Shown: in pieces, positions 15,301 to 36,300 of the stretch
Layout: each line of letters begins with the position of its first letter
Position numbering within the stretch: the first letter of the stretch is position 1
DNA from: Antedon mediterranea
Taxonomy: Eukaryota; Echinodermata; Crinoidea; Comatulida; Antedonidae
Assembly (NCBI RefSeq): GCF_964355755.1
Contig: NC_092675.1
Span: forward strand, 10,677,312 to 10,741,311
Length of the DNA stretch: 64,000 nucleotides
Direction of reading: 5' to 3'
Notes under the pieces: generated by a model
What the model was told of the DNA's origin: nothing
Seen by the model: the letters and a program-made list of their open reading frames with translations, nothing else
The model's database searches: none
Position numbers and translations under genes: made by a program

Positions 15301-18300
15301 CAGTTATCAAAAGTCAAGAAGATGTTCACCATATACACACTAGTTCTTATGAAAAGGTATTTATCATGATCATTCTTGTTTGGTTAGCCATTCATTGACT
15401 GAAGTTGACATATGCATTGTCTTGCGTGAGAGAGACCAGTATCTTATGTCTTTTCAAAAAATATTTTTAGTTAATTAATATTTATATATATATATTAATA
15501 TATTAAGATTTATTGTCCCTTTGACTAATTCCAAAAAAAAAAAAAAAAAAGATTTCGAAAAAAGGTGGGTCATTTTGAAGTAACTTAATTTTTGCTCAAC
15601 AAATAACTTTTTTTTTATATCAAAACATATCTCATAATGCAACGCGCTTATTTGGCTACTCTGTATGCATAATCATAAACTTCCTCGCGATCTCTGTGAA
15701 AACACCTTCTCAACCGTGATGAGTTGTACACAATCCTAATGAGCATCATGAATAATGCATACTCATGGTTTGAATCTTTGCTCGCGACGATTTTCCTGTA
15801 TGTAATCAAATTAATTTATCTGTTAATTAAGTAAACTTGTTGTTTTTGGCTTGAATTTTTGACTTAAAATGAATAACTTTAATATTACTTTGATATGGCC
15901 AATTTAAATTTAAAATATTTTGACCTTCATTTTTTGTGTTTCAAGGGACAATACATCTTTAAATAGGCAGTTCTGTAACCCAATGTGAATCCTTTAACAG
16001 ATTCTCCCCTCCTGGGTCAGGGGATCCTGAAGCTCATTATGGGCAGGGTCACTCATGTCCCTAATCAGAATGTAACCCAATGTGAATCCCTTAACAGGTG
16101 CTCTCCTCCCGAGCCAGTGGATCCTGAAGCTCATCATAGGCAGGGTCACTCATGTCTCTAATCAGACTGTAACCCAATATGAATCCCATAACAGGTGCTC
16201 TCCTCCCGGGCCAGGGGGATCCTGAAACTCATCATGGGCAGGGTCACTCATGTTTCTAATCAGACTGTAACCCAATGTGAATCCCTTAACAGGTGCTCTC
16301 CTCCTGGGCCAGGGGGATCCTAAAGCTCATCATGGGCAGGGTCACTCATGTCCCTAATCAGACTGTAACCCAATGTGAAGTAACAGGTGCTCTCCTCCTG
16401 CGCCAGGGGGATCCTAAAGCTCATCATGGGCAGGGTCACTCATGTCCCTAATCAGACTGTAACCCAATGTGAAGTAACAGGTGCTCTCCTCCTGCGCCAG
16501 GGGGATCCTGAAGCTCATCATGGGCCGGGTCACTCATGTCCCTAATCAGACTGTAACCCAATGTGAATCCTTTAACAGGTGCTCTCCTCCCGGGCCAGGG
16601 GGATCCTAAAGCTATCATGGGCAGGGTCACTCATGTCCCTAATCAGACAATCAGAATTTCATTCTCATTGGTTATCCGCACTTGACGTATAACCCCTTGT
16701 TATTGTCTCGATTTCTTTTTTTTTTTTTCGATATTCTTCTTTCTTTTCACGAATTTTGTTTGCAGCGTATCTCTAATTCTGGCCAACAGAAGATTGTATA
16801 ACTTTGACCTGTGGCTGTAGATATGCAGCCAAGCTTTTTGACGATGTCGGAGTTGCGCAGCGTAAGTTACGCGCAATATTATGAATTTCAATGATTGATC
16901 ATAGATTAAAAACCAAAGTCATTTTAAGTCATATCATGCGCAAACTTTCTATGGATTAAAAATGGCATGTTTCACAGAAAGTTATACGCGTACGCGTGTT
17001 TAAAATTTCAAGATGTGAAAAATCAATTTCTAATCAACTTTCTACACACTTCATGTCATTTTAAACATTTCAAAAATTCCCACGCGTGCGCAGTTTTTTA
17101 CGCGCTACATTTACGCGCATGTAGCGCAAAACAAATATTTTTTTGCGTGATTTTTGTTTTTCCAGCCTTCTTTAGTAATTTTATCAACTTTTCAAACAAT
17201 TTTGACATAAAATCATGTCATACGAGCACGTCAAATTGTACAATTCGCACGCGTTTTTGATGAAAAAGTTCAAAAATTTGTGAAATTATGCCTTTTTTCA
17301 AACAGTCATAGATTCTAAACTACGTGGTGAACTTTTTTTAAATTACATATTCTGGAAGTTGATGAGTTATAGATATTGAATCATGCATCGATATGGCTAA
17401 CTGGACATTGTGATGTCATCGTATGGCCACTCGAATATAAAATATAGGATTTTTATCTCTTTCCTCATAGCTCATCACATTTAATAGAGCGCATCTCCAC
17501 TTATCCGTATTCCATTTCCCTCCATTTTTTTTATATTGTCTAGGTCAATCAATTATCATTCGCATGATTTACCATTTATAAAATGTTTATGAAGTCATCA
17601 TGTGCAAAAGCGTCAATAACTTTTTTAAATTGTGAGTATCTAGTGATACTGTATACCTGTGTTTATGTGTGAAAATGAAATGTATTTGTACAGTACTCTA
17701 TGTGTACTCATAGTCAATATTGACTATGGTGTACTTTAGGTAGTTATTGGATAGTTTTTAATTTTAGGTAAAATAGTATAGGCCTAGTTTAAATGTTGTT
17801 AATAATATCTTGAACATTAGCATCTAAAAATTGCTAATACAATGAACTCTTATTTTGCTATTAAATATAGGACCTAAACTGGCTGAAAATATTCCTAAAA
17901 CCAATCAATTAAATTGTGGAAAACCTATCTCAACCAATAATGTTGAGATAGGTGTGAAGTAAAACAAGATTACATATACAAGCTACTCTTCAATCTATCA
18001 ACTAAAAAAGTGACTGGAAATGACGGAATCCCTTGTAAATTGATAAAATTAACAATTAACTATATTTTAGAACCAATAACTTTTATTGTTAACTTATCTG
18101 TAACTACAAGTCGTTTTCCAAAAAAATGGAAAAGTAAAATAAAATTGGAATTATCATCCCTTATTCGTTTAACCATAAATTTTATCCTTATTTAAACTCT
18201 CACTCCTTAATCTATGAAAACTATCTGGCTTGAGACCTAACTTTTCTACTTCATCTGCCCTGATTAATATAACTGAAGACTGGATTTAAAGAAAGCATTT

Positions 18301-21300
18301 GACACTGTGGCAACCATAATATCCTTGTAAAATGTTGTCATATTTTGATGTTGATTTTAATGTTGTAAACTGGTTCAGTAATTAGTATAACTGACTGTAA
18401 CCATATAACAAATGTTTTTGGTGTCTTGTCGGAACGATATAACAGTGTCTGATGAATACCCCAGGAGTCTATCCTTGACCCTGTGTTGTGTTTACTGTAT
18501 ATAAACGATCTTCAAAATGTTGTTAAACATGTTAAACTAAGTATGTATGCAGATGATACTGCTTTGTATTACATATCTAAAGATCCAAAAGATATCACGA
18601 TGCGAAAGCACGATAAAATCTTATGTGAACCTGGCTATTGTTAACAAAATTAACAGTGACCTTGTAAATATAAATAACTGGCTATGTAACAACGAACTAA
18701 GCTTAAATGTAAATAAGACAGAGTTCATGTTTATAGGTTTGCATATAAAATTATCAAAATTATGAAAGAAAAACTTAATTATTAATATAAATGGAATCCC
18801 CCTTCAGAGGGTTTCACACTGTAAACACCTAGGTGTTCAAATTGATGTTGAACTTATTAAAAACAAAGTTCTGCCAGGTTTAGTTCTATCTTAAAAAAGC
18901 TACTTGTTTGTTGCCAAAGCATCTCCAGTCATTGCTATATTAAAGTAACCACCCATTTTGACTACTGTAACATCAAGTGGGGCAGATGCAGTAAAAATCT
19001 CAATCGTAACATTCAAGTGCTTCAAAATAGGGCAGCAAAAATAATCACTAAAAAAAGAAAGTATGATTCGGCTACAGAGCCACTTGAAGTACTTAAATGG
19101 AATAATCTTGAATGTAAACTTACCTACAACTAAAAAGTCTTAATGTATAAAATAACAAGACTCCGACTTATCTATCAAATAAATTTACTCAAAGAAAATC
19201 CTAATATGATACAAGATCTAAAAATGACCTGTGTCTAGTAAAGCCAAATACAGAATATGAAAAGAAAAGTTTTTCTTACCGTGGAGCCAAAATTTGGAAC
19301 GAAATTGATATAAACACAAAAAATGCTCTCTCCTTAAACAATTTCAAAAGATTAATTCCTTCTTAATTAAGCCTGTTTTGTTGTAGTAGAGTTTTATAAT
19401 TGTTAGTTTTTCTGTTTTAATTTTTATCTACTAACTTCTATCTATTCACTGCGGAGCATTATTCCCACCTCTGTGCGTAATATATATTTAAGAAAAACAT
19501 GATATTTTAATAAATTGCTAATTGAGATAATTTTGTAATTATTGGTGTGTGGGCAAAGGGTTAGTCTACAGTTAGGTAAAAAAAAAAATGTAATTTGCAT
19601 ATTGATGACGTCATGTGACGTTAATTACCGGTATTTTGGATTTTGTGTTTTCTATCGAACCAATGATAAAAACTATATTTTCTATAAGAAATTCTTATGA
19701 AATACGTTTTTCCAACTGGATATTGATGAAGATACGTATAACATATAAAAATATATAAAAAAATTGAATTATTTTTATTGTTTTATAAAAATTATGCACA
19801 AATCAAAGTTTTAATGACTTGCAAAAATATTCAGGTTCATCGAAAAAATATAGAGGGTGCTATATATTATAGCCAAATACGATTAAATCATTGTTTTGCC
19901 CATAACCGGTATTACTGTGTATACGTATTTTAACGACGTCTGTTTAACCGGGTATACGCAGTGAAAGGGTTAATATACATTTTTATACTTTTTTTTTTTT
20001 TTGCTCCTTTCAATGTATAATTTTCTTGTTTGTTGATCGGTTTGATAATTGTTGTGATACTGTAGTTGTATTTCTTTCATACAGACCTCGCAGAAGCACA
20101 TATTTTGAGCCTCCATTTCAAAAAGATTTTATTATTATAACAGTAACACAGTTTCAACAACAACAAAACCACAATGGTCACTATTTCTAAGACAAACTAC
20201 AGTATACCACATAAAAATTGTCATAACATTTCTGTCACACTTTCACAGATGTATATTGATGTAAAATCGAAATATGACAAATTGGTATTAAATGAGAAGC
20301 TCATGGAAAAGAAGTTGAAGGAAATGATGATACCTGCTGTATCAACAAATAATGCTGAGACTCAAGTGGACTCAACCGCAACTGGCACTCAGGTGGGCTC
20401 AACAGCATCTAAGACTCAAGTAGGCTCAACCGCAACTGGCACTCAGGTGGGCTCAACAGCATCTAAGACTCAAGTAGGCTCAACCGCACCTGGCACTCAG
20501 GTGGGCTCAACAGCATCTAACACTCGGCAAGCCTCATTCACACCTGAACAAATACCAATAACACCTCACTCTCACCCACAACCATTGGTAGTTGACCATC
20601 ATAGATTATTGTTAGCAGGCGACAGAGTTGAAAGATCCAGTAGACCAAGATATAGGAGTCAAACCTTCAGTGGAATTAGTGTAAATGATATACATTATTC
20701 TGGACTTGATGCAGGAACTACAATGGTAAAGTAATAAATTACATTTGTATTTATTTACTCACTCTAGTGACTTTCTTAGCAAACCCGATGCACAGTGACC
20801 TTGGAAGCTCGCTCAAGTGCTTTATCATAAGTTGTGTACTGCTCCCCAACCCTCCATATGCAATATGGTTGTTGTTGGAGCATATTCCTAAAAAAGGTGG
20901 ATAAAATCTGATTGGATGGTAGCCCCCAGTAATTTGACTACTCAGGCTTGGAAGAGGTAGTTTGCTGGTCAAAGATCAATGATTAAGGGAATCAAGTCCA
21001 TCCTGGATCTAACTGCCTAAAACTTGACTTTCTTCAAGTGTAATTCCACATACTTCCAGGCCTGAGTTGAGGCCCAAAGCGTCTCTAGTGTATTGTTGAT
21101 CACACATAAACATAATAAGTGTGAGGGGTATCAATTGTTAAGATTGATTTTTATCCTTTATACTTAAGTTATGGTTTTCTGTCCAGGATGAACAAATAAG
21201 ACACAACTTAGGAAGAAAGGAAAAAAAAGTGTTAGAAGAAAACTATGAAAGAAAGATGTCTGATCTCAGAAAACTTTTGAAACTGAAGGTAATGGCTGTA

Positions 21301-27300: not shown

Positions 27301-30300
27301 TATATTTTTTCTACAGAATAAACTATTAAAGCAACAACTTCAACAAGAAAGAAATGAAAATAAGAAACTTATATCTGATCAAATACAACTAGAAAGAGAG
27401 GCAAGGTAACAAATTGTCAGGTCATAGTTTGTGGACATGATGATGTCATATCACTACAATATTTGACTATACCATTTGTCAAACTAGTTTGATAGTGTAG
27501 ATAGAGCTTTAGAACAATGGAGGTGTTTTTTTTTTGTATTTTCTCTCTGATCTTTTTCCTGATGATGATTTGTGGGTTTGTATGTGTTGGACGATAAAGC
27601 TCTTTGTTAAATTTTTACCGTATATGTTGGTTGATGCTTCAAATAATATATGGAGTTATACCTGTATGTAAATTTCAGATCTGCCAGAGCTGATTTGTGT
27701 ACTGTAAAGACGGACTTTCTTAGCAAAGAGACAGAGGTACAGCACAATAAACAAGAAATACACAAATTAAAAAGAAAGATGAAACGTAAGAATAAGAAAT
27801 GGAAACAGTATAAGGCAGACAAACATTTGGCAATAAAAACTCCTAAGCAGGTAATGTGTTATATTCTCAATTTTTTTTAATATTGATGTATGTATATCTT
27901 TATATTGAAAATACTTTCAGTACAGTCTGCTATTCTCAAAGTTGAACAGTTAAAGATATATATATATATCCCTGAAAAAATGTTTTAATTATTTTTGTTG
28001 AATATGTTATTTTAATGTCACAATGTCATAGTTATTCACTTTGACCAAATATGGGACCGGGAAAAAAAATTACCTGGAAAAAAAATAGTCAAACTGGAAG
28101 TTTGTCTTTTCACAAGTGAAAACTTTTTTTTTTACGGATTAAGTTTAGTAATTAACTTGATTAAAACTGTGAAATGGACTATTCAAAGTCTTTTTTTATT
28201 TATATTCATTTTTCATATTTTTAGGGGACAATACATCTTTAAAATAAAAATTCTGACTTAAATGGTGAGAATATCGCAAGATTTACTAATGATTATTAGA
28301 TAAAAAAAATTGAATAATATTTTTTTCAAAGTATTATTAAAATTTAAACTCTATATTAGTGAACCTTGACGGAAATAAAATAAGCAGAGCTGGTTGGGTA
28401 TACGAGCAAAAATGTATACAAATTTATTTTGAATATCAGGGTTCGTACAGGTTTGGAAAGTTATGGAAATTCAATTTAGTATTAAGGTCCTGGAAAATAG
28501 AAAACATAAAATGTGAATGAATAAATAAGTGTTAATGTCTGCAAAATGGAAAAGCTATGGACAATTTCAAGAAAGATAGTTCAAACCTAATTAAAGTCAT
28601 GTTTAAACAAGAAAATGATTGAACATATATCTTTTTACTTCCAGCATCAACTTTTCTTGAATAAATCCATCTTAAAAATGAGGAAGGTTTTTCCAGAATT
28701 TGAAGATAACGAATGGGAAGATGTGCAGTCTGATAGGTAAGACAGCAGCTCTATCATGTTTTTGTTTTTGTGATAACGAATGGGAAAATGTGCAGTCTGA
28801 TAGGTAAGACAGCAGCTCTATCATGTTTTGTATTTATGATAACGAATGTGAAGATGTGCATTCTGATATGTAAGACAGCAGCTCTATCATGTTTTGTTTA
28901 ATGATAACGAATAGGAAGATGTGCATTCTGATAGGTAAGACAGCAGCTCTATCATGTTTTGTTTTTATGATACCGAATGGGAAGATGTGCAGTCTGATAG
29001 GTAAGAAAGCAGCTCTGTCATGTTTTGTATTTATGATAACAAAGAGAAGATGTGCATTCTGATAGGTAAGACAGCATCTTTATCATGTTTTGTTTTTATG
29101 ATAACGAATGGGAAGATGTGCAGTCTGATAGGTAAGACAGCATCTCTATCATGTTTTGTATTTATGAAAATGAATGGGAAGATGTGCAGTCTGATAGTAA
29201 GACAGCATCTCTATCATGTTTTGTTTTAATGTTAACGAATGGGAAGATGTGCATTCTGATAGGTAAGATAGCAGCTCTATCATGTTTTGTTTTTATGATA
29301 ACGAATGGGAAGATGTGCATTCTGATAGGTAAGACAGCAGCTCTATCATGTTTTGTTTTAATGATAACGAATGGGAAGATGTGCATTCTGATAGGTAAGA
29401 CAGCATCTTTATCATGTTTTGTTTTTATGATAACGAATGGGAAGATGTGCAGTCTGATAGGTAAGACAGCATCTCTATCATGTGTTGTTTTAATGATAAC
29501 GAATGGGAAGATGTGCAGTCTGATAGGTAAGACAGCATCTCTATCATGTTTTGTATTTATGAAAATGAATGGGAAGATGTGCATTCTGATAGTAAGACAG
29601 CATCTCTATCATGTTTTGTTTTAATGATAACAAATGGGAAGATGTGCATTCTGATAGGTAGGAAAGCAGCTTGATCATGTTTTGTTTTTATGATAACGAA
29701 TAAGAAGATGTGCTGTCTGATAGGTAAGATAGCAGCTCTATCATGTTTTGTTTTTATGATAACGAATAAGAAGATGTGCAGTCTGATAGGTAAGACAGCA
29801 GCTCTATCATGTTTTGTTTTTATGATAACGAATGGGAAGATGTGCTGTCTGATAGGTAAGATAGCAGCTCTATCATGTTTTGTTTTTATGATAACGAATG
29901 GGAAGATGTGCAGTCTGATAGGTAAGACAGCATCTCTATCATGTTTTGTTTTAATGATAACGAATGGGAAGATGTGCAGTCTGATAGGTAAGACAGCAGC
30001 TCTATCATGTTTTGTTTTAATGATAACGAATGGGAAGATGTGCATTCTGATAGGTAAGACAGCAGCTCTATCATGTTTTGTATTTATGATAACAAAGAGA
30101 AGATGTGCATTCTGATAGGTAAGACAGCATCTTTATCATGTTTTGTTTTTATGATAACGAATGGGAAGATGTGCAGTCTGATAGGTAAGACAGCATCTCT
30201 ATCATGTGTTGTTTTAATGATAACGAATGGGAAAATGTGCATTCTGATAGGTAAGACAGCATCTCTATCATGTGTTGTTTTTATTATAACGAATGGGAAA

Positions 30301-33300
30301 ATGTGCATTCTGATAGGTAAGACAGCAGCTCTATCATTTTTGTTTTAATGATAACGAATGGGAAGATGTGCAGTCTGATAGGTAAGATAGCAGCTCTGTC
30401 ATGTTTTGTTTTTATGATAACGAATGGGAAGATGTGCATTCTGATAGGTAAGAAAGCAGCTCTATCATGTTTTGTTTTTATGATAACGAATGGGAAGATG
30501 TCCATTCTGATAGGTAAGACAGCAGCTCTGTCATGTTTTGTATTTATGATAACGAATGGGAAGATGTGCAGTCTGATAGGTAAGACAGCAGCTCTGTCAT
30601 GTTTTGTATTTATGATAACGAATGGGAAGATGTGCTGTCTGATAGGTAAGACAGCAGCTCTATCATGTTTTGTTTTTATGATAACGAATGGGAAGATGTC
30701 CATTCTGATAGGTAAGACAGCAGCTCTGTCATGTTTTGTATTTATGATAACGAATGGGAAGATGTGCAGTCTGATAGGTAAGACAGCAGCTCTGTCATGT
30801 TTTGTATTTATGATAACGAATGGGAAGATGTGCTGTCTGATAGGTAAGACAGCAGCTCTATCATGTTTTGTTTTTATGATAACGAATAAGAAGATGTGCA
30901 GTCTGATAGGTAAGATAGCAGCTCTATCATGTTTTGTTTTTATGATAACGAATGGGAAGATGTGCTGTCTGATATGTAAGATAGCAGCTCTATCATGTTT
31001 TGTTTTTATGATAACGAATGGGAAGATGTGCAGTCTGATAGGTAAGATAGCAGCTCTGTCATGTTTTGTATTTATGATAACGAATGGGAAGATGTGCAGT
31101 CTGATAGGTAAGACAGCAGCTCTGTCATGTTTTGTATTTATGATAACGAATGGGAAGATGTGCAGTCTGATAGGTAAGACAGCAGCTCTATCATGTTTTG
31201 TTTTTATGATAACGAATAAGAAGATGTGCAGTCTGATAGGTAAGATAGCAGCTCTATCATGTTTTGTTTTTATGATAACGAATGGGAAGATGTGCTGTCT
31301 GATATGTAAGACAGCAGCTCTATCATGTTTTGTTTTTATGATAACGAATAAGAAGATGTGCAGTCTGATAGGTAAGATAGCAGCTCTATCATGTTTTGTT
31401 TTTATGATAACGAATGGGAAGATGTGCTGTCTGATATGTAAGACAGCAGCTCTATCATGTTTTGTTTTTATGATAACGAATAAGAAGATGTGCAGTCTGA
31501 TAGGTAAGATAGCAGCTCTATCATGTTTTGTTTTTATGATAACGAATGGGAAGATGTGCTGTCTGATATGTAAGATAGCAGCTCTATCATGTTTTGTTTT
31601 TAGTCGCGTGGAAGCGACTCTATAGTTCACTATGTCGGTCGGTCGGTCTGTCTGTCTGTCGGTCTGTCTGTCTGTCTGTCCGGTATCACTATGCGTTTTA
31701 TCGCTTTATGACCTTATCTTGATATCAGTTTAATCTAGCTAAGTCAATTTTTCACAGAATATTCCTTATGGCCAGGAATCGATGTGGTTATGTTTTCACG
31801 GTGCGCAATAAAAAATTACGCGGTCTACGCACGATTTAACGAAATCACGTTTGTAATCATATCTTAACAACCATGAATCACAATTAAATAAAATTTGGTA
31901 CTCATAAATTTCAGGGCATAAATCATCATATGGCAATACAATTACGTGCGTAGCGCATGTAACGCATGCGTACGCGCGCTTAAAATTTTCAAAATTTATT
32001 TTCGATGAAATAAGAGTACGTTTCAGGCAATTTTAAGCGTTTACAAAATTGCCATGAGTGCACAGATTTTTGCGCGCGCACTGCGCGTTAAATGTTATTG
32101 CGCACTCATTTTGCCCGATTTCTGTTTTCTTGACTTACTTTTCAACTCGAAATTACGTTATACGAGCACGTCAAAAGTGACAGGCTACGCACGTGTAAAT
32201 TAAAAAAATATAAATGTTTTTAAACATTTCAACATTTTTAAACATGTTCAGTAATTTCGGTCAGTATAGTTCACTATGTCGGTCAGTCCGTCTGTCTGTC
32301 GGTCTGTTTGTCTGTCGGTCCGGTATCACTATGCATTGTAGCACGCGACTTAATGGCTGTTGGCCTTGTTATGATAACGAATGGGAAGATGTGCTGTCTG
32401 ATATGTAAGATAGCAGCTCTATCATGTTTTGTATTTATGATAACGAATGGGAAGATGTGCTGTCTGATAGGTAAGACAGCAGCTCTATCATGTTTTGTTT
32501 TTATGATAACGAATGGGAAGATGTGCAGTCTGATAGGTAAGATAGCAGCTCTGTCATGTTTTGTTTTTATGATAACGAATGGGAAGATGTGCTGTCTGAT
32601 AGGTAAGATAGCAGCTCTATCATGTTTTGTTTTTATGATAACGAATGGGAAGATGTGCTGTCTGATATGTAAGATAGCAGCTCTATCATGTTTTGTTTTT
32701 ATGATAACGAATGGGAAGATGTGCTGTCTGATAGGTAAGATAGCAGCTCTATCATGTTTTGTTTTTATGATAACGAATGGGAAGATGTGCTGTCTGATAT
32801 GTAAGATAGCAGCTCTATCATGTTTTGTTTTTATGATAACGAATGGGAAGATGTGCTGTCTGATAGGTAAGATAGCAGCTCTATCATGTTTTGTTTTTAT
32901 GATAACGAATGGGAAGATGTGCTGTCTGATATGTAAGACAGCAGCTCTATCATGTTTTGTTTTTATGATAACGAATGGGAAGATGTGCTGTCTGATAGGT
33001 AAGATAGCAGCTCTATCATGTTTTGTTTTTATGATAACGAATAAGAAGATGTGCAGTCTGATAGGTAAGATAGCAGCTCTATCATGTTTTGTTTTTATGA
33101 TAACGAATAAGAAGATGTGCTGTCTGATAGGTAAGACAGCAGCTCTATCATGTTTTGTTTTTATGATAACGAATGGGAAGATGTGCTGTCTGATATGTAA
33201 GACAGCAGCTCTATCATGTTTTGTTTTTATGATAACGAATGGGAAGATGTGCTGTCTGATAGGTAAGATAGCAGCTCTATCATGTTTTGTTTTTATGATA

Positions 33301-36300
33301 ACGAATAAGAAGATGTGCAGTCTGATAGGTAAGACAGCAGCTCTATCATGTTTTGTTTTTATGATAACGAATGGGAAGATGTGCTGTCTGATATGTAAGA
33401 CAGCAGCTCTATCATGTTTTGTTTTTTTGTGATTTAATTTTGGCTCAATGATGTATGTTTGTTTTATTATTCAGTGATGATGTTGTTAGCAGTAACCCAG
33501 AGAGTTTAGGACAGCAAATAATGCGGTCAGCAAACAAGTTGTCAAGGAGGAATCTGTCAGGTCTAGTAAAATCACCCAAGTCACCGCGAGAGGTAACCAT
33601 ACACATTTTTCATAACCTACTGTAAAACCTTGAAAAGCGAGGCTTTCTTTTAGGATTCTTAGGTGTGCTTTTTTTTTAGATGGGCTTCTTTTTTAAATGA
33701 ATGCTCTAAATTTTGTAAATTGCTACTACGATAATATGATTTTTTAGACATTCTCTACCAATTTTACACATTTGCCAAAAAGCAGATAATTGAAGAAGAT
33801 ACAAGATGCAATCAAAGTACCATTTGCAAAACAACAAATTTGTAGAATAAATATTTGAGGCTTGATTGTTGAGATTATTAAGGGATGTAAGGTCATATTG
33901 ATATAACACGATCATACATTTCTATTCCTTTGACATTATACAGTACATTCAAAAAGAAGCGTTTAGCGTGTGACTGTAATTTAATATGAGTCTATCTGAT
34001 CCTTGTGTAACATTTAATAGGAGAGTTTAAGATCCAAACCTTTTTGCAACTTTAATACAGTAATTGGCCAAATGGTTGTAATTGTATTTTGTCTTGTACT
34101 CCAGTGAGCAGTATCATAAAAAATGTCCATAATAATTATGTACATTATTGTACATTATTGCACATTATAGGTAAATGTGAACTTCACTAGTATTAGATAG
34201 GGATTAGAGAATGACATCAACAATGCCTTGAAATAGTTTGACCTGTAGCAAAAAGTATAGTTGTTATAATTAAGCAAACACATTCCCTCCTTTCATATAG
34301 TTAATTTCTGTTGAAACCTACCTAAGGCGGATGGCTAAGGCATACAAAGGCAAAGAAGCAGAGCATACAATCCAAATATCTGTAGCAACTCAGACTGAAC
34401 GAGGTATACAATACATTTTAATAATTAAATTTGATATGATAACTCTACATTAAATTATATTTTAATATTTAATATATGTTACAATACTGACATCTGTGGA
34501 GCAGTGAGCCCTGAAAATAATCCAATACATGCTACAGTATAGAAGCCATTAGATAGTACTGTAAAACCCCACAATTACCATGGGCGCTTGTCGAATGGCA
34601 TGTGATGCCTACTTCACCAATCAAAAGAGAGAGATACACTCAGGTGTGTTTAAAACAAATTTGTTGAACTAAGTATTAGTACTTTCAAAAATTCCATGTC
34701 AAAATAAGGGTAAAATGAGTGTAGATTTTCTGGGGCTTCTAATGAGACAATGAAGCTCTATAGCTCGTAAGCCAGAATAAATAAAGCTTATTTTTATATG
34801 CAGTTCAAGAAGCAGAAATTAGATTCTTAAAAGAATCTTTGCTTGAAAAGAATGATGAAATAGCATCAATGACAGACAGTGAAGGTAGCAGTTTGAGTAC
34901 CATTGTTACTTCATGTAAGACAAATTGTATTCCTATTTTTTGTGTGAAGATTTAATCAAGTCATTTCTGGTAATGAAGGATTTTTTAATGATAAAAAGGA
35001 CAGAGAAAATGAATCATACAGTACTTTACTTAAAATGAAATAAAAGGTTTTAATTATTTGTCACTGTGACAAATAATTTACCTATTGATTCTGTCAGAAT
35101 TTGTAAATTAGATTGGTACCTCTAATATGGTATCTGGTTTTACTGCACATCCAACCATACACTTTAAGAAATCAGAAGATTCCTCTAGGTTGCTATGTCG
35201 TAGACTATATTGATATTCCTTTCAGCCCCTAAAGTTGAGAGACAACACACAGCAACTTCACCACACTTACCACTACCCAAGTTACAGAAACTTCTTGTGA
35301 AGACATACTGTGGAAAGGCTGGGCTAACAGACCAAAATATTTGTAGTTTGAAGAACCGACTTGCATCCCTTCAACAACAGGTAAAGATGGCATATTATAT
35401 ACAATAGCATTAAAACAGGTATTTGCCATACTTACTCTACTCAATTATTTCTTGAAATTGTACTTTTGTGTTTATTTGTATGAAAGGTATAATAAATCCA
35501 AAGGCGATTTACTGAAAAAATGACAATGCTTTGGGCATCAGTCAATGGAGATACAAAACAAAATAAGCATAAAAAGTAAAAAAAAATGAAATGATAAAGT
35601 AAAACAGCCAGAAAATTTGCAGTGCAAGTCACTATAAAAAAAAATAGGTCTGTCTGTTTCAAAGAAATTGGCTATAATAAGAGGTTTCATGTAAACAGCA
35701 TAAATGGAGGAATTTTAAAAAGGTATACTTTGCGAGTATTGACCGCATGATTTAGGAAGAGATAGCAGGGGACAAAGGCAAAACAGCTGTTAGTATGGTT
35801 CGTTATTCAATCCATGCGATTGGTATATAACACTATATTTTGTGTTGTTAGGTTATAGCAACAAAAAGATCAAAGCGCATTCTTCAACAATCTGTGGAAC
35901 AGTTGACTGCAAAATGTGAGCTACTACAAGCTGATTTGAGCCTATCCAATCAAAGGTTGAAGATAAGCAAAGAAACCATAAAAGTACATATCTCTACTAT
36001 ACATATACACAACATAAAGTATTTTTTTCACAAGTAATGTGGCATGCAAACCACTGTTTATTTACTATTTGTTTACCCTATTACAAAGTATTAGGATTTT
36101 ATGATACCACAAACGATTTTGTATTGAATAAATTTTCATTGAAAAAAGTAGTTTTTCAGAATGAGTGAAAAATAAATTGCCATGTGACCACAGATTTATG
36201 CAAATTACCATTCTTTTCAATAGCCTCCCCCTTTTCCTTTAAAAGATCTTACAGTACACCGTGAAAGGGTTACCACTTTTATACTATCTTGTTTTTTTTT

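What the first reader, a model, noticed from the sequence alone, without database searches (positions are those of the whole stretch)
28705..33426. Minisatellite made from an exon end plus its own splice donor
The 66-bp unit begins inside the last 32 bases of CNTLN exon 20 (GATAACGAATGGGAAGATGT... encoding [10 protein letters not shown]) and runs across the GTAAGA donor into the intron. About 60 tandem copies follow, so the intron holds dozens of copies of the same exon/intron junction in the sense direction. Each intact copy is a potential 5' splice site and U1 binding site competing with the real one. In the exon frame each copy meets TAA at the donor (AGG TAA), so use of any later donor would truncate centlein. 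I know of no described case of a splice-junction minisatellite of this size. It may be a curiosity of replication slippage or may affect splicing or premature polyadenylation (U1 shielding).
Basis: partly seen in the sequence, partly recalled or inferred. Interest (0 to 1): 0.88.

Follow-up and report, generated by a model that had tools for sequence, protein, structure and literature searches.

The report
Splice-donor minisatellite, one of several
The end of one exon and its splice site have been copied 60 times in a row into the neighbouring intron, and the same has happened in several other genes of this animal, which makes them natural tests of how cells pick one splice site among dozens of near-identical ones.

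Summary
Sixty head-to-tail copies of a 66-bp unit (32 nt of exon end plus 34 nt of intron) start inside an exon and cross its donor. All 60 copies keep GT; 46 of 60 keep the exact native donor TAG|GTAAGA.

"No described case" is wrong: such arrays are known from lancelets as "mirages". What is new is scale and recurrence. In the same genome I found the structure at exon ends identified by homology: a dynein heavy chain (82 copies), DHX8, SUGCT, TDP2, an SLC35A-type transporter, and two consecutive exons of DDX54. In 6 of 6 genes the protein resumes in an exon beyond the array (for DDX54, the first), as if only the exon-side donor is used.

Donor-motif arrays are not clearly commoner than arrays of a reversed control motif, and decoy donors vary like the rest of the unit. 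I read them as neutral by-products of a minisatellite-rich genome, tolerated because exon definition picks the first donor. Against this, 5 of 7 measured host introns would be only 77-224 nt without their arrays, where last-donor use is predicted. RNA would settle it. The host animal is unidentified; the name CNTLN is untested.

The parts
28645..28736 (+).
   Evidence: Acceptor TTCCAG, open frame continuing into the next exon
28737..28742 (+). Native donor GTAAGA (9-mer TAG|GTAAGA)
28705..31602 (+). Array block A, copies 1-44; copy 1 overlaps the last 32 nt of the exon
31603..32372 (.). 770-bp insertion with GTCTGTC-rich stretches near both ends; probable mobile element
   Evidence: identity not tested
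32373..33426 (+). Array block B, copies 45-60
33427..33474 (+). Remaining 48 nt of the intron, ending ...TTATTCAG
33475..33592 (+). Next exon, 118 nt, followed by GTAACC

Best explanation
A mirage-type minisatellite. A short stretch spanning the exon end and its donor was duplicated in tandem (its edges share a GAT: exon GAA-GAT-AACG, intron TTGT-GAT-TTAA) and grew by slippage or unequal exchange to 60 copies, so that an intron that would otherwise be about 82 nt is now 4,738 nt. It is tolerated because the spliceosome defines the exon from its upstream acceptor to the nearest downstream donor, copy 1; all later copies stay intronic and drift as neutral DNA. It belongs to a wider set that arises because this genome makes many minisatellites, some of which happen to straddle exon ends. 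SHOWN: array anatomy; donor integrity; the same structure at homology-identified exons of six other genes; resumption of the protein beyond the (first) array in those six; no clear excess of donor-motif arrays against one control motif; no donor-specific constraint. INFERRED: the duplication mechanism, use of copy 1 in RNA, and exon definition as the reason.
For: Anatomy; the 3-unit block 28-30 recurs as 31-33. Other genes: arrays start at the ends of exons that match PF04142, PF02515 and PF00270 above the Pfam cut-off, and PF12777 and PF22669 below it, and PDB sequences of TDP2 (1.4e-10), DHX8 (9.8e-20), axonemal dynein heavy chain 3 (2.3e-14), SUGCT (1.9e-18) and DDX54 (2.4e-18, second array exon). 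Downstream exons resume the same protein in 6 of 6 genes (continuity judged by recall of these families, apart from SLC35A). For SLC35A an independent profile search puts one exon at model 187-251, ending at the array, and the next at 250-315 beyond it. Over 9 arrays 236 of 271 copies keep the native 9-mer, and the donor window is not unusual within the unit (26-100% of circular windows are as low or lower; two arrays have no variation and say nothing). Three-donor loci at 78-108 nt steps: 8 on the whole of C1 against 11 reversed-motif loci in its first 38.6 Mb; single sites 56,100 against 69,145. Minigenes with two identical donors and long flanking introns used the upstream donor exclusively (PMC9225289, passages).
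Against: No RNA data. Without arrays 5 of the 7 introns that I could measure would be short (77, 82, 113, 195, 224 nt; the others 709 and 813; derived by hand); PMC9225289 reports that short introns favour the downstream donor, so a two-copy ancestor should often have mis-spliced. At the widest step the donor motif gave more matches than the control (1621 v 1143), and an acceptor + donor + donor pattern gave 110 v 17, though most of its listed rows are one array on C3. A pooled test gave lower variation in donors (Mann-Whitney p 0.017, Fisher p 0.033), but three arrays had a wrong left edge there and most arrays were found through their donor motif. One control motif, few loci. The shared GAT is only 3 bp.
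Confidence: 0.75

Rival explanations
1. The decoy donors compete with the real one and tune gene output: some transcripts use a later donor, gain a stop codon and are destroyed (NMD), so copy number sets expression.
For: 46 of 60 donors here and 236 of 271 over 9 arrays are identical to the native one; extra sequence reaches a stop within the first extra unit in 6 of 9 arrays.
Against: No donor-specific conservation or erosion; similar density of control-motif arrays; in lancelet mirages splicing is reported as undisturbed.
Confidence: 0.1
2. The array is a U1 snRNP landing platform that suppresses premature polyadenylation in a long intron.
For: Dozens of sites with full U1 complementarity in sense orientation (duplex -9.4 kcal/mol for 46 of 60).
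Against: Without the array the intron would be about 82 nt, so there would be little to protect; donor windows are not conserved above their surroundings.
Confidence: 0.04
3. Copy number or the array itself is an assembly artefact.
For: Raw reads could not be seen; tandem arrays are prone to mis-assembly.
Against: 36 distinct units of 60 and a unique 770-bp insertion inside the array; the same structure in unrelated genes.
Confidence: 0.04
4. Copies act as recursive-splicing (ratchet) points, since TAG|GTAAG joins an AG to a GT.
For: Every native-type copy reads AG|GT.
Against: No pyrimidine tract directly upstream of the AG (GAAGATGTGCAGTCTGATAG); not tested further.
Confidence: 0.03

Closest known systems
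Lancelet 'mirage' minisatellites (Adh3, globins BflGb6 and BflGb9, PGBD5, troponin C)
   Same: [quoted passage not shown] BflGb6 150-160 bp), repeat turnover, splicing reported as undisturbed (passages of PMC3087553 and PMC3902484)
   Different: Here 5-82 copies per array, against 6 and 3 repeat units reported for two BflGb6 haplotypes; recurrence in several unrelated genes of one genome with exons identified by homology; host not shown to be a lancelet (GC 33% in the window, 35% in the fetched loci; no GFP match, weak evidence)
Intron gain by tandem duplication across a boundary (potato RdRp, PMC4974935, abstract only)
   Same: Tandem duplication across an intron-exon boundary
   Different: There a new intron is reported; here the existing intron is lengthened
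Competing identical 5' splice sites in minigenes (PMC9225289, abstract and passages)
   Same: Identical donors compete in cis; the upstream one is used under exon definition
   Different: Two engineered sites there; up to 82 natural ones here, and no RNA measured

Membership tests
Mirage minisatellite (lancelet type) | Tandem unit spans an exon-intron boundary | tested here: met
   Unit = last 32 nt of the exon + 34 nt of intron
Mirage minisatellite (lancelet type) | Minisatellite-sized unit (published examples 10-160 bp) | tested here: met
   66 bp here; 20-78 bp in the other eight arrays
Mirage minisatellite (lancelet type) | Many, not all, copies keep the AG/GT signal | tested here: met
   46 of 60 have the native 9-mer; 11 have T at -1, 2 have ATA|GTAAGA, 1 has TAG|GTAGGA
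Mirage minisatellite (lancelet type) | Copies homogenised within the array, edges less so | tested here: inconclusive
   Mean identity 0.92 in units 2-20, 0.93 in 21-40, 0.96 in 41-60: only the exon-side part is more diverged
Mirage minisatellite (lancelet type) | Normal mRNA splicing despite the array | not testable with these tools
   No RNA; protein continuity in 6 of 6 other genes is indirect support
Mirage minisatellite (lancelet type) | Length polymorphism or somatic instability | not testable with these tools
   Only one assembly is held
Mirage minisatellite (lancelet type) | Host is a cephalochordate (only hosts reported in the passages seen) | tested here: inconclusive
   No GFP-family match, while a multi-exon family was found exon by exon in the same genome; GC 33-35%; lancelet GC of about 41% and lancelet GFPs are recalled
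U1 platform against premature polyadenylation | Donor sites conserved above their surroundings (my criterion) | tested here: not met
   Donor windows are not unusual within units

The most novel reading that the evidence does not exclude
The first donor wins even where the intron started out short (77-224 nt without the array in 5 of 7 measured cases), which the intron-proximity rule does not predict. If RNA confirms copy-1 use in young arrays within short introns, this animal commits to the first-transcribed donor whatever the intron length, and tandem arrays at exon ends are a regular route by which short introns become kilobases long.
Probability: 0.25. Interest if true: 0.8.

Novelty: new member of a known kind. 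Interest (0 to 1): 0.55.

Why it matters
How the spliceosome chooses among equal 5' splice sites has been studied with engineered pairs of sites (PMC9225289). This genome supplies ready-made series of 5 to 82 near-identical donors in well-known genes, with introns of different original length, so first-donor, last-donor and distance rules make different predictions that one long-read RNA experiment can separate. It also shows a concrete route by which short introns could grow to kilobases.

Tried and rejected
Host identity: no match for COX1 (perhaps no mitochondrial contig is held), GFP or chitin_bind_4; for the last two nothing rang in the 14 control genomes either, so these are weak negatives. 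A search for genome notes with 18 pseudomolecules gave 41 papers, 38 listed; none of the abstract starts shown gives 354 Mb. Left open.

The acceptor + donor + donor pattern seemed to find an SLC6 mirage at C4:7390714; its first motif lies inside the exon, so I rejected it. L022-L025 from the same search show no array.

Of 20 loci found by three-donor patterns (10, 7 more, 3 more; each listing stops after about 100 rows, so 19 of 20 lie on C1), 19 were fetched; C1:2719048 was not (its listed letters are the 66-bp satellite unit of L004/L005). Six of 20 are at homology-identified exon ends (L007, L009, L010, L012, L015, L016), one is probable (L019), the other 13 are satellites, a mini-exon array or unrecognised. 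Of 7 such motifs outside the array in the window, about 3 look like real donors by my reading, so a third of arrays at real donors is no excess.

Naming the window gene by Pfam failed (proteins 7 and 10). My first unit segmentation found 37 copies and was replaced. The first pooled donor test gave three arrays a wrong left edge and was redone; for TDP2 one search counts 28 native donors by alignment, one search counts 27 by string search, and I use the latter.

Literature: searches (15 of 15 listed; 15 of 24; 5 of 5; 2 of 2; 15 of 87) showed, in the titles and abstract starts listed, no boundary-spanning minisatellite outside lancelets; only openly licensed PubMed Central papers are covered, and the potato case is a single duplication.
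Full report
WHAT IS THERE. Block A (28705-31602) holds 44 copies and block B (32373-33426) 16 copies of one 66-bp unit; 51 of 60 are exactly 66 bp. A 770-bp insertion (31603-32372) separates them. Copy 1 is partly real exon: the exon runs from 28645 to 28736 and its last 32 nt are the exonic part of the unit. The next exon is 33475-33592; the two join in one open frame. The exonic part of the 59 intronic copies is no longer held to the coding sequence: 13 of its first 29 columns vary, including TGG-to-TAA-type changes and one-base deletions.

DONORS. 46 of 60 copies have the native 9-mer TAG|GTAAGA (duplex with the U1 5' end -9.4 kcal/mol), 11 have TAT|GTAAGA (-4.3), 2 have ATA|GTAAGA (-4.5), 1 has TAG|GTAGGA (-9.1). 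59 of 60 keep GTAAG, 60 of 60 keep GT. Read-through past copy 1 stops at once (...SDR*).

HISTORY OF THE ARRAY. There are 36 distinct units among 60; units 28-30 recur as 31-33, and two-unit alternation is frequent at the end of block A and in block B. Mean identity is 92% in units 2-20, 93% in 21-40 and 96% in 41-60. This is ordinary repeat turnover. The left edge (GAA-GAT-AACG) and the right edge (TTGT-GAT-TTAA) share GAT, and copy 1 ends in the TTTGT-GAT form seen at the right edge, unlike most other copies. This fits a start by tandem duplication at a 3-bp match; it is inference.

IT IS NOT ALONE. The unit itself was found only at this locus. But genome-wide patterns of three donors (AGGTRAG) at 47-77, 78-108 and 109-139 nt steps list 20 loci, 19 of them on contig C1 because the listings stop after about 100 rows. 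I fetched 19 of 20. At six the array begins at the end of an exon identified by sequence search: SLC35A type (PF04142, E 1.5e-21), SUGCT (PF02515 E 7.3e-10 and PDB 1.9e-18), DHX8 (PDB 9.8e-20), axonemal dynein heavy chain (PDB 2.3e-14 to DNAH3; a slightly better hit, 9fqr_Xx at 5.3e-15, bears another molecule name), TDP2 (PDB 1.4e-10), DDX54 (PF00270, E 1.8e-19). The following DDX54 exon (PDB DDX54, 2.4e-18) carries a second array, found in passing. L019 on C2 is a probable further case without homology support. Copies: DNAH 82 of 68 bp, TDP2 29 of 31 bp, DHX8 23 of 37 bp, SUGCT 23 of 20 bp, DDX54 5 of 78 bp and 22 of 55 bp, SLC35A 10 of 25 bp, L019 17 of 41 bp. With the window array that is 9 arrays and 271 copies, 236 with the native donor 9-mer.

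WHICH DONOR IS USED. Beyond the array (for DDX54, beyond its first array) the next exon resumes the same protein in 6 of 6 genes, for example DHX8 ...LTEPP|GDILMFLTGQEEID and dynein ...YDKVAK|VVGPKQEKL. That these are the right continuations rests on my recall of the families, except for SLC35A, where the profile ends at position 251 before the array and resumes at 250 after it. The exon beyond the second DDX54 array was not found in the fetched stretch, and L019 and the window gene were not tested by homology. So a working protein needs copy 1. In the phases that I assigned, using a later donor would reach a stop within the first extra unit in 6 of 9 arrays and shift the frame in 2 of 9 (DNAH, SLC35A); only DDX54's first array, 78 nt and open, would add in-frame repeats.

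WHY TOLERATED. PMC9225289 (abstract and passages) reports that with two identical donors and long flanking introns the upstream one is used exclusively, and that short introns favour the downstream one. The present intron is long (4,738 nt), which fits. But without arrays 5 of 7 measured introns would be 77 (DHX8), 82 (window gene), 113 (DNAH), 195 (DDX54, first) and 224 nt (TDP2); SUGCT and SLC35A would be 709 and 813 (one intronic part of a unit plus what follows the array, added by hand). A young two-copy array in an 80-nt intron should therefore often have mis-spliced. Either growth was abrupt, or the introns were once longer, or this animal prefers the first donor anyway. I count this as the open and most interesting point.

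SELECTED OR NEUTRAL. Donor-motif arrays are not clearly in excess: 10 loci in 19.4 Mb against 2 reversed-motif loci in 3.6 Mb; at the middle step 8 loci on the 41.4 Mb of C1 against 11 in its first 38.6 Mb. Total matches are 2306 v 2787, 1921 v 2577 and, the other way, 1621 v 1143; an acceptor + donor + donor pattern gave 110 v 17, most listed rows being one array on C3. Match totals mostly reflect a few long arrays. Single sites number 56,100 v 69,145. The donor window is not special within units; an earlier pooled test gave p 0.017 and 0.033 for lower donor variation, but with wrong left edges in three arrays and with arrays mostly found through their donors. So I see neither attraction to donors nor selection on decoys, within the limits of one control motif and few loci.

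PREVALENCE, EXTRAPOLATED. Four homology-identified arrays lie in the first 19.4 Mb of C1, which scales to about 70 in 354 Mb for donors matching AGGTRAG at the 47-77 nt step; the true figure could be several-fold off.

KNOWN KIND. Boundary-spanning minisatellites called mirages are published in lancelets: Adh3 and globins (PMC3087553, passages), PGBD5 with mention of troponin C (PMC3902484, one passage), with reports that splicing is undisturbed. The original 2002 paper is not held. The listings show none outside lancelets, within an open-licence library and partly capped lists. Whether this host is a lancelet is unresolved: 33% GC in the window, 35% in the fetched loci and no GFP match speak weakly against it (lancelet values recalled). 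The genome has 354.4 Mb in 18 contigs.

VERDICT. Observation confirmed, 'no described case' refuted, mechanism most likely neutral tolerance. The value lies in the series of natural multi-donor introns.

Noticed in passing
L020 (G000 C1:2121000-2124500): About 18 copies of a 132-bp unit that can hold a whole 27-nt mini-exon (NITEPQEP) between a clean acceptor (...TTATTAG) and a clean donor (GTAAGTT); 12 stretches match acceptor plus donor, 11 of them 27 nt long and open in one frame. May be a gene with tandem mini-exons.
   Followed up: partly
L026 (G000 C3:38923700-38926000) and C3:38919536 onward: 57-bp array of dozens of copies whose unit carries both an acceptor (TTTCACAG) and a donor (AAAG|GTAAGG) around 31 nt, near the end of contig C3; acceptor-plus-donor arrays also in L030, L031, L032.
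   Followed up: partly
L016 (G000 C1:41228900-41231200) and L038: Two consecutive exons of the DDX54 gene each have their own donor array (78 bp x 5, all copies identical; 55 bp x 22).
   Followed up: yes
window 31603-32372: 770-bp insertion within the array with GTCTGTC-rich stretches near both ends and a short inverted pair (AGTCGCGTG / CACGCGACT); looks like a non-autonomous mobile element.
   Followed up: no
window 20358-20525: 27/54-bp repeat inside a long open frame (TQVGSTAS repeats), apparently a coding minisatellite.
   Followed up: partly
window 15973-16648: 98-bp x 7 G+C-rich array; no exon end recognised.
   Followed up: no
L004, L005 and G000 C1:2719048: Dispersed 66-bp satellite (AGGYAAGTCTGCTCATAG...) in long arrays at several places on C1; not exon-derived as far as seen.
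   Followed up: no
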